DNA from: an uncultured Elusimicrobium sp.
Lineage (GTDB): Bacteria > Elusimicrobiota > Elusimicrobia > Elusimicrobiales > Elusimicrobiaceae
Reading direction: 5' to 3'
DNA length: 37,931 nucleotides
NCBI GenBank assembly: GCA_900319325.1
Contig: ONOD01000010.1
Location: forward strand, 1-37,931
Shown: one piece after another, positions 28,087-37,931 of the stretch
Layout of the letters: each line of letters starts with the position of its first letter
Numbering within the stretch: the stretch's first letter is position 1
Notes under the pieces: model-generated
What the model saw: only the letters and a program-made list of their open reading frames with translations
What the model was told of the DNA's origin: nothing
The model's database searches: none
Program-made: the position numbers and the translations under genes

Positions 28087-28716
28087 TTAAAATCTAAAAC
28101 CGAATTTGAGTAAGATTTCTCCGTAGTGGATGTTATCTTTACCAAATTGGTTTTCAAAATCGTCACGCGTGCGCATCATATAATAACGCCCTTCCGCACC
28201 AAAAATGATTGATTCATCAATATCAAATTCCAGCCCCACACCTAACATCCCGGCTAAGTCTGTGCTGTTGTAAGTTTCGTGAGAATCATCCTCTTTGTTT
28301 TGGCGGGTAAACACGTGCCCTACCCCGATACCAACCGGGATATAAATGCGCGTTGTGTGGCGCGGAAAGAAATTAACACGCATAGCTACCAAGCCGGTAG
28401 CCGCACCGGTACGATAATAGGATTTGTCGGCACGTTCATCACCATCCCCAAATTGAGCATAGTTGCCGTCTAAACCCAGAGCGATTACGCGGGAAACGTT
28501 GCGGTAAAAGCCCAAGCCGGCACTCCAACCAATGTCTCCAATGTCCACACTTTCCCCGTCGTGGTTCCAATTGCTTTGAGGAAGAACCATCCCTCCGTAA
28601 AGTTCTATGCGGGTAGCGCCTGCATACAAGCCTTCGTTATGGATCGGGTAGTAATTTTGTGCATATCCAAACGAAAAGCAACCTAATAGCAAGCTTAACA
28701 AAAGTAGTTTTTTCAT
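28087..28716 (-). CDS. Small outer-membrane beta-barrel protein
   Basis: A 209-residue protein with a signal peptide (MKKLLLLSLLLGCFSFGYAQ). The body alternates polar and hydrophobic residues with turns of Asp, Gly and Asn, as in OmpA/OmpX-type eight-stranded barrels: IELYGGMVLPQ, SAGLGFYRNVSRVIALGLDGNY, AMRVNFF, YIPVGIGVGHVF, MLGVGLEFDID, IIFGAEGRYYMM. It ends in a C-terminal aromatic, LLKFGFRF, the signal recognised by the BAM machinery. The start at 28716 is set by AAGGAGA; the longer frame from 28770 has no signal peptide at its start. It is transcribed from the symmetric promoter shared with the CsgG-like lipoprotein gene. Confidence 0.88.
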   Translation of the reverse strand: MKKLLLLSLLLGCFSFGYAQNYYPIHNEGLYAGATRIELYGGMVLPQSNWNHDGESVDIGDIGWSAGLGFYRNVSRVIALGLDGNYAQFGDGDERADKSYYRTGAATGLVAMRVNFFPRHTTRIYIPVGIGVGHVFTRQNKEDDSHETYNSTDLAGMLGVGLEFDIDESIIFGAEGRYYMMRTRDDFENQFGKDNIHYGEILLKFGFRF

Positions 28717-28749
28717 CTTGTCTCCTTGTATAGTAGTTAAGATATTTAT

Positions 28750-28779
28750 ATTGTAAATTTTTTCCCGCAAATTTACAAT
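28750..28779. promoter_or_regulatory. Symmetric bidirectional promoter with 10-bp inverted repeat
   Basis: TTGTAAATTT (28751-28760) and AAATTTACAA (28769-28778) form a perfect inverted repeat with an 8-base spacer. Read on either strand it gives TTGTAA, exactly 17 bases, TACAAT, a credible sigma-70 promoter. The minus one faces the barrel gene at 28716, the plus one faces the CsgG-like gene at 28825. The -35 of one overlaps the -10 of the other. Confidence 0.65.
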
Positions 28780-28812
28780 ACACGTTTACTGCTTTTGCGT
28801 GTTTAAAAATTA

Positions 28813-28818
28813 TATAAT
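28813..28818 (+). promoter_or_regulatory. Second -10 box of the CsgG-like lipoprotein gene, leaderless
   Basis: TATAAT six bases before ATG. Combined with the upstream symmetric promoter, the gene may have two start sites, one of them leaderless. Confidence 0.55.
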
Positions 28819-28824
28819 GAAGGT

Positions 28825-29499
28825 ATGAGAAAAGGACTGCTGTCTATCCTGGCGGGGTTATGTGTGGCGGCCTGTGCGCCTACCACGGTGATCAGCCCCT
28901 CGTACGATTTTAGCCAAGTAAACCGTATTGGGATTATGTCGTTTACTAACTCGTGGGCGGATTTGAACGGGGTGGAAAATTTATTTGCCAAATATTTAAT
29001 CCGCAATGGATTTAAAGTCGTAGAACGCGCCCAGTTAGAAAGCATCCTTAAGGAACATAATATTTCTGTCTCCGGCTATTTAGCGCCGGAAACCACGCGC
29101 GAAATTGGCCGAATTTTGGGCGTAGATTTACTGTTAATTGGCGAAGTAAGTTCTTACACACCGGCACGGACCGAACTAACAATGACGGCTTCGCGCCGCA
29201 GCGAATCGCGCCCCATTATGCACCAAGACGTCATGCGTATGCCGGATGGTTCCTACGTCGGGTATCAGCGCCCCGTAGGCACGCAAGTTTCCAACTCTAT
29301 GGACGTGCGCCCCACGGAATATACCATCAACGCCAAAGTAGCCATTATCGCCAAATTGGTAGATGTAGAAACCGCCGAAATTGTATGGATCGGTTCAGAC
29401 AGTACAGAAAGTTCCCGCGCTTTGGACGGGGCCGATTATATTGCTAAAAAACTAGTAAAAAGTTTTGCCAAAGAACTAGCCAAGCAGGAAAAGAAATGA
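28825..29499 (+). CDS. CsgG-like envelope lipoprotein
   Basis: A 224-residue protein whose signal ends in a lipobox (CVAAC, lipidated Cys17). The CsgG/LpoB-like domain follows: VNRIGIMSFTNSWADLNGVENLFAKYLIRNGFKVVERAQLESILKEHNIS, then GRILGVDLLLIGEVSSY and INAKVAIIAKLVDVETAEIVWIGSDS. These are the usual GADALLLGxV and RLVDxxTGEVL-type strands of the family. CsgG itself is an outer-membrane export channel for curli, but most short homologues are periplasm-facing lipoproteins of unknown role. No csgA, B, E or F gene is near. The stop overlaps the next start (ATGA). Confidence 0.88.
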   Translation: MRKGLLSILAGLCVAACAPTTVISPSYDFSQVNRIGIMSFTNSWADLNGVENLFAKYLIRNGFKVVERAQLESILKEHNISVSGYLAPETTREIGRILGVDLLLIGEVSSYTPARTELTMTASRRSESRPIMHQDVMRMPDGSYVGYQRPVGTQVSNSMDVRPTEYTINAKVAIIAKLVDVETAEIVWIGSDSTESSRALDGADYIAKKLVKSFAKELAKQEKK

Positions 29500-37695: not shown

Positions 37696-37727
37696 ATATG
37701 ATTAGTTTTTCAAATTTTGCCCGGTCT

Positions 37728-37753
37728 AAAAAGTTTTCACGTGAAAACTTTTT
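37728..37753. promoter_or_regulatory. parS-like site 3
   Basis: Core AGTTTTCACGTGAAAACT extended to a perfect 26-bp palindrome, overlapping the stop codon of the right-end gene. It is 57 bp from site 2, start to start of the cores. Confidence 0.88.
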
Positions 37754-37931
37754 ATCCCTGCTTGTTTATCAAATGTTGATAAAGCTGTTGATATTGTTGA
37801 GAACTGTCCACTATTGTAGCAATTTTTTGCAAAGAATACGAGCCCATTTCCTGCCGAAGAGAAGCATTTTCATAGAGTTCGGTAAGCAGACAGGCCAATA
37901 GCATTTCATCCCCGGGTTTACAGGTAAAGCC
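37752..37931 (-). CDS. Probable glycosyltransferase (GT4/GT1 type), C-terminal end
   Basis: Only the last 59 residues are inside the window; the start lies to the right. The fragment GFTCKPGDEMLLACLLTELYENASLRQEMGSY followed by QQYQQLYQHLINKQG matches the end of GT-B glycosyltransferases. There GxxxxPGD is followed by A-x-x-L-x-x-L-x-x-N-x-x-L-R-x-x-M-G and a closing helix ending LYxxL. The family is suggested by this pattern only, and substrate cannot be inferred. The stop overlaps parS-like site 3. Confidence 0.6.
   Translation of the reverse strand, partial: GFTCKPGDEMLLACLLTELYENASLRQEMGSYSLQKIATIVDSSQQYQQLYQHLINKQG

What the first reader, a model, noticed from the sequence alone, without database searches (positions are those of the whole stretch)
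28750..28779. A single symmetric promoter appears to fire in both directions
The inverted repeat TTGTAAATTT-N8-AAATTTACAA reads as TTGTAA-N17-TACAAT on both strands. The -35 of each direction is embedded in the -10 of the other. It lies between divergent genes for an outer-membrane barrel and a CsgG-like lipoprotein. RNA polymerase could bind one way or the other but not both, giving a built-in balance. It might equally be an operator covering a minus-strand promoter.
Basis: seen in the sequence. Interest (0 to 1): 0.5.

Follow-up and report, generated by a model that had tools for sequence, protein, structure and literature searches.

The report
One-way promoter that became nearly symmetric
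The striking palindrome is real, but across related gut bacteria only the promoter pointing to the outer-membrane gene is conserved, while the neighbouring lipoprotein gene has its own separate start signal, so the mirror symmetry looks like an ordinary coincidence.

Summary
The palindrome is real and slightly longer than reported: TATTGTAAATTT-N8-AAATTTACAATA, 28749-28780, the only such site in the 1.27-Mb draft genome. Read either way it scores 9 of 12 against a sigma-70 promoter. Relatives decide between the readings. In 62 orthologous loci of the genus, the strand facing the beta-barrel gene always keeps TTG(T/C)(A/C)A-N17-TA(C/A/G)AAT (9-10 of 12; spacer 17 in 61). The opposite reading drifts from 9 down to 5 of 12. 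Changes in one arm are never mirrored in the other (0 of 22 and 0 of 26), and swapping arms between species gives the same symmetry as observed (7.09 against 7.03 of 11). The csgG-like gene has its own promoter, AAAATTATATAAT-N5-T-ATG, placed so that transcription should start on the A of the ATG; 61 of 66 genomes match this motif. In 46 of 60 relatives a KdsC-like gene separates the pair, yet the symmetry is no rarer there. Best reading: an ordinary one-way promoter for the barrel gene, made perfectly symmetric by chance in sister species. Two-way firing in this species is not excluded; it needs 5'-end mapping.

The parts
28749..28780 (.). Perfect 12-bp inverted repeat, 8-base loop
28773..28778 (-). 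-35 hexamer TTGTAA of the barrel-gene promoter
   Evidence: TTGTAA, TTGTCA or TTGCCA in 62 of 62 loci with a site
28750..28755 (-). -10 hexamer TACAAT of the barrel-gene promoter; start expected near 28743 (inferred)
   Evidence: TACAAT, TAAAAT or TAGAAT in 62 of 62 loci with a site
28087..28716 (-). Outer-membrane beta-barrel gene (PF13505), ATG at 28716, preceded by AAGGAG
   Evidence: the longer ORF start, TTG at 28770, is not the conserved start
28751..28779 (+). Mirror-image promoter-like reading TTGTAA-N17-TACAAT toward csgG; probably incidental
   Evidence: decays in relatives
28806..28818 (+). csgG promoter block AAAATTATATAAT with -10 TATAAT at 28813-28818
28825..29499 (+). CsgG-domain lipoprotein-like gene (PF03783), predicted leaderless: -10 is 6 nt from the ATG, no Shine-Dalgarno at usable spacing

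Best explanation
The site is the ordinary sigma-70-type promoter of the minus-strand beta-barrel gene: -35 TTGTAA at 28778-28773, 17-bp spacer, -10 TACAAT at 28755-28750, start near 28743, then a leader of about 27 nt with AAGGAG before the ATG at 28716. RNA polymerase reads it toward the barrel gene. The mirror symmetry arose because the allowed variants TTGTAA and TACAAT happen to be near reverse complements and because the A/T-rich spacer edges completed the arms in one three-species group. csgG is transcribed from its own promoter at 28806-28818, probably as a leaderless mRNA starting at the A of its ATG. In most relatives a KdsC-like gene lies between the two, and the same -35 overlaps or closely follows its last codons. 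The tree suggests that this gene was lost from the slot several times, leaving the promoter exposed between a divergent pair. Shown: conservation, absence of arm covariation, arrangements. Inferred: transcription, its direction, and the direction of the gene loss.
For: Barrel-direction score 9-10 of 12 in all 62 loci with a site (64 examined), spacer 17 in 61, distance to ATG 23-43 nt; opposite-direction score 5-9 of 12. No mirrored change: 0 of 22 TTGTCA arms and 0 of 26 non-TACAAT arms are compensated; mean symmetry 7.03 of 11 against 7.09 with arms shuffled between species (61 N17 loci). Plus-direction hexamers intact in 4 of 14 directly divergent loci against 22 of 46 with a gene between. 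csgG block AAAATTATATAAT-N5-TATG: a match in 61 of 66 genomes, reversed control 0 in every genome. The arrangement changed at least 7 times on the barrel-protein tree. In a 400-kb sample of relative G023, 17 bp is the commonest spacing between TTG... and TA..AT (16 hits; 1-9 at each other spacing of 10-24).
Against: Within the window species and its two nearest relatives both readings score equally (9 of 12), so sequence alone cannot forbid plus-direction firing here. One further divergent locus, L070 (G003), has intact hexamers in both directions. TTGTAA with TACAAT is the commonest pairing (28 of 62), so symmetry at the hexamers is frequent. No RNA data were available. In two of 64 loci no site was found: L166, whose hit begins inside the gene beside an N gap, and L160, whose spacer by eye is 19 bp.
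Confidence: 0.83

Rival explanations
1. A true bidirectional promoter: RNA polymerase binds the palindrome in either orientation and makes the barrel mRNA one way and a leadered csgG mRNA the other way, each excluding the other.
For: Both strands score 9 of 12 with 17-bp spacing; the pair is divergent in this species; bidirectional promoters are common in E. coli and Salmonella (PMC12825309 and PMC10268837, passages read).
Against: Plus-direction hexamers kept in only 4 of 14 divergent loci and no rarer where there is no directly divergent target; csgG has its own conserved promoter; the plus transcript would reach csgG without a usable Shine-Dalgarno (sequence); predicted starts lie 43 bp apart, outside the 7-25 bp range that defines the published class. 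The 2026 E. coli paper reports basal activity at five tested promoters too low for polymerase competition (abstract), against the proposed built-in balance.
Confidence: 0.1
2. An operator: a dimeric regulator binds the 12-bp arms and represses the barrel promoter that it overlaps.
For: Perfect dyad over a promoter, longer than the hexamers require.
Against: No second copy with up to 3 mismatches, or with any spacing of 7-21 for the 7-bp half sites, in the genome; no mirrored change between arms in 61 orthologues; sister species at 57-74% barrel identity have symmetry of 6-7 of 11 only.
Confidence: 0.05
3. A transcribed hairpin: a longer minus-strand transcript from the csgG side runs through the palindrome, which folds in the leader of the barrel mRNA.
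For: The palindrome lies between the csgG -10, which itself reads TATAAT on both strands (28809-28818, sequence), and the barrel gene.
Against: The stem is not conserved in sister species, and the palindrome holds a good promoter whose transcript would start beyond it. No RNA folding was run.
Confidence: 0.02

Closest known systems
Sigma-70 housekeeping promoter
   Same: TTG-type -35, 17-bp spacer, TANAAT -10, leader with Shine-Dalgarno at normal distances
   Different: The hexamers are variants that happen to be mirror images in this species; in most relatives the -35 overlaps or abuts the end of an upstream gene
Bidirectional promoters of E. coli and Salmonella (Warman, Grainger and colleagues)
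   Same: Promoter DNA symmetric enough to be read in both directions
   Different: The published class shares one -10, with starts 7-25 bp apart and usually 18; here each -35 overlaps the other's -10 and starts would be 43 bp apart. The 2021 founding paper was not held and is known here only through citing papers
Leaderless genes with an ORF-adjacent -10 (Deinococcus-Thermus and others)
   Same: csgG: TATAAT six nucleotides before ATG
   Different: Phylum Elusimicrobiota; not shown by RNA. The comparison rests on titles and abstract starts of PMC12340547 and PMC3160421 in a search listing

Membership tests
Sigma-70-type promoter (barrel gene) | -35 and -10 hexamers near consensus with 16-18 bp spacer | tested here: met
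   9 of 12, N17; 62 of 62 orthologous sites 9-10 of 12
Sigma-70-type promoter (barrel gene) | Transcription start about 7 nt after the -10 | not testable with these tools
   no RNA data
Bidirectional promoter (Warman class) | Divergent start sites 7-25 bp apart around a shared -10 | tested here: not met
   predicted starts 28743 and 28786, 43 bp apart (from hexamer positions; definition)
Bidirectional promoter (any geometry) | Both directions conserved | tested here: not met
   plus direction 5-9 of 12, intact in 4 of 14 divergent loci
Dimeric-regulator operator | Dyad symmetry kept through mirrored changes | tested here: not met
   0 of 22 and 0 of 26 mirrored; shuffled arms equal observed
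Dimeric-regulator operator | Further sites at other targets | tested here: not met
   single copy in an 87% complete genome; a one-target regulator is not excluded
Leaderless gene (csgG) | -10 about 6 nt before ATG, no Shine-Dalgarno, conserved | tested here: met
   N6 in 60 of 61 loci with the block, 64 examined; a motif match in 61 of 66 genomes
Leaderless gene (csgG) | mRNA 5' end at the A of ATG | not testable with these tools
   no RNA data

The most novel reading that the evidence does not exclude
The true two-way element of this intergenic region is not the reported palindrome but the csgG promoter block about 30 bp away. Its core ATTATATAAT (28809-28818) is perfectly self-complementary, puts TATAAT on both strands, and would give starts at 28825 (plus, leaderless csgG) and 28802 (minus), 23 bp apart and inside the published 7-25 bp range. 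The AAAATTATATAAT block (-19 to -7) is conserved at 97-100% per position in 61 loci; these were selected for carrying TTATATAAT, so only the upstream letters are independent of the selection. It could be a genus-wide bidirectional leaderless promoter. Minus-strand use was not tested.
Probability: 0.2. Interest if true: 0.42.

Novelty: new member of a known kind. Interest (0 to 1): 0.2.

Why it matters
It turns an eye-catching palindrome into a usable annotation of two promoters, and shows with some 60 relatives how a one-way promoter can pass through perfect symmetry without visible selection for it. The more useful by-product is evidence for leaderless genes with a fixed TATAAT-N6-ATG layout in a little-studied phylum.

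Tried and rejected
Bidirectional promoter: rejected as the main reading by conservation. Operator: rejected by the absence of covariation and of further copies. A relation to the GATAAATTT...AAATTTATC inverted repeats found in relative G023 was considered, since they look alike; these sit around the apparent start codon of pilin-like genes and have 0 copies in the window's genome, so they are something else. Other symmetric two-way promoters (9 of 12 both ways on one dyad): none in 400 kb of G023, one in the window, this one. The scoring script misplaced L088 on a different hexamer pair; the stricter search replaced it. The first upstream listing, showed minus-strand loci unoriented and was redone. 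Rows dropped: genome G083 (no barrel match) and G062 (hit split over two contigs, not fetched) of 66; L160 and L166 of 64 (no site); L054 and L060 from the arrangement counts (csgG block not found nearby); L076 was placed in the gene-between class by hand because its upstream ORF shows it; L135 (N18) left out of the arm test. The intervening gene was identified by profile for one genome only (G002): KdsC subfamily TIGR01670 100.7 bits, just under the cut-off 106.95; elsewhere it is recognised only by position and C-terminal sequence. The window's genome keeps a 34%-identical relative on another contig.

Full report
The observation. The site reads ATTGTAAATTT-N8-AAATTTACAAT at 28750-28779, and one more base pair extends it to 12-bp arms at 28749-28780. 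Each strand gives TTGTAA-N17-TACAAT, 9 of 12 to consensus. The window has one match to the pattern with up to 3 mismatches against 0.02 expected, and the 1.27-Mb draft genome (86.6% complete) has no other copy with up to 3 mismatches, nor any other TTGTAAA-N7..21-TTTACAA. With one mismatch allowed in the two hexamers, the genome has 13 further hits besides the site itself read on both strands, against 2 for the reversed control pattern; two of these places are matched on both strands. So the description is right.

The setting. The minus-strand gene is an outer-membrane beta-barrel protein (PF13505, 39.9 bits) and the plus-strand gene a CsgG-domain protein (PF03783, 51.2 bits); neither reaches an NCBIfam cut-off. 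The named relatives found with the csgG protein are Elusimicrobiota metagenome genomes, the nearest 91-92% identical (RUG14410 and RUG540). Within the genus 65 of 66 genomes have a barrel match. I read 64 of these loci.

Which direction is kept. On the barrel strand a -35/-10 pair was found in 62 of 64 loci: TTGTAA (38), TTGTCA (22) or TTGCCA (2), then TACAAT (36), TAAAAT (23) or TAGAAT (3), with a 17-bp spacer in 61 and 18 in one, 23-43 nt before the ATG. Scores are 9 or 10 of 12 throughout. The mirror reading toward csgG scores 9 in 26 loci, 8 in 12, 7 in 10, 6 in 7 and 5 in 7. The six loci that join the window's three-species group in a starred nine-row clade, at 57-74% barrel identity, carry TTGTCA or TTGCCA arms in five cases, which leave GACAAT or GGCAAT as the mirror -10; the sixth, L058, keeps TTGTAA but its mirror -10 is TACAAC.

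Is the symmetry itself kept. No. None of 22 TTGTCA arms has a mirrored partner, nor any of 26 loci whose -10 departs from TACAAT. Mean symmetry is 7.03 of 11 in 61 loci against 7.09 when right arms are dealt out among species, and 1588 of 2000 such deals contain at least one perfect pair. This keeps the make-up of each arm and shows that the perfect palindrome needs no selection for symmetry.

Is symmetry tied to a divergent pair. No. A KdsC-like gene lies between csgG and the barrel gene in 46 of 60 classifiable loci. In 41 of these 46 its stop codon ends 17 or 26 nt after the first base of the -35 (counted from the listing), so the -35 lies in its final codons (often ...IVKGL). In four others the stop is just upstream, and in one the script chose another frame. 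The arrangement changed at least 7 times on a barrel-protein tree of modest support. Plus-direction hexamers are intact in 4 of 14 divergent loci and 22 of 46 separated loci; paired comparisons on the tree, too few for a test, are neutral or go against the two-way idea.

What csgG uses. Right before csgG stands AAAATTATATAAT-N5-T-ATG at 28806-28827. At least one match to this motif exists in 61 of 66 genomes, with 0 matches to the reversed control in every genome; 9 of the 70 listed places are second sites elsewhere in a genome (counted from the listing). I did not check every place against csgG; those that I compared by coordinates coincide with it. In 61 loci selected for TTATATAAT-N6/7-ATG upstream of the barrel gene, the four upstream A's are present in 97-100% and T precedes the ATG in 98%. 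The last T of TATAAT is 7 bases before the ATG, so by the usual rule the first transcribed base is the A of the start codon. This layout is not peculiar to csgG: in 400 kb of G023, TATAAT-N6-ATG before ORFs of 100 codons or more occurs 9 times against 0-2 at each other spacing from 0 to 15, and 0 for the control hexamer at N6. In the window's genome 28 of the first 100 listed TATAAT-N3..10-ATG hits have N6, 22 of those with T before ATG (170 hits in all against 89 for the control, 100 listed).

Literature. Two-way promoters in bacteria are established: passages read in PMC10268837 and PMC12825309 describe starts usually 18 bp apart around a shared -10. The geometry here would give 43 bp. Papers holding both 'Elusimicrobi' and 'leaderless' numbered two in the library; the passages I read in one (PMC10783764) list Elusimicrobia among anti-Shine-Dalgarno classes, and the other was seen only in the listing. 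That search is the whole basis for saying that I saw no report of leaderless genes in this phylum.

Verdict. An ordinary one-way promoter of the barrel gene that has reached mirror symmetry in three sister species (11, 11 and 10 of 11), beside an independent and probably leaderless csgG promoter. Confidence 0.83; what is missing is RNA.

Noticed in passing
28806-28827, and TATAAT-N6-ATG sites throughout G000 and G023: A fixed TATAAT-N6-ATG layout, usually with T before the ATG, suggests many leaderless genes in this genus.
   Followed up: partly
L172, L174, L176, L177, L182 (G023 C1 near 83514, 138255, 162820, 186823, 286772): Five pilin-like genes (GFTLIELLVV by eye) begin inside an inverted repeat GATAAATTT...AAATTTATC with the apparent start codon in the loop; 0 copies in the window's genome.
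   Followed up: partly
37727-37754: Second perfect long inverted repeat of the window, TAAAAAGTTTTCACGTGAAAACTTTTTA.
   Followed up: no
L061, L063 and other loci upstream of the barrel gene: Barrel promoter -35 embedded in or abutting the last codons of a KdsC-like gene; TTGTAA to TTGTCA there is a synonymous valine change GTA to GTC.
   Followed up: partly
window 28087-28770 (-): The longest ORF starts at a TTG at 28770 inside the palindrome; the conserved start is the ATG at 28716.
   Followed up: yes
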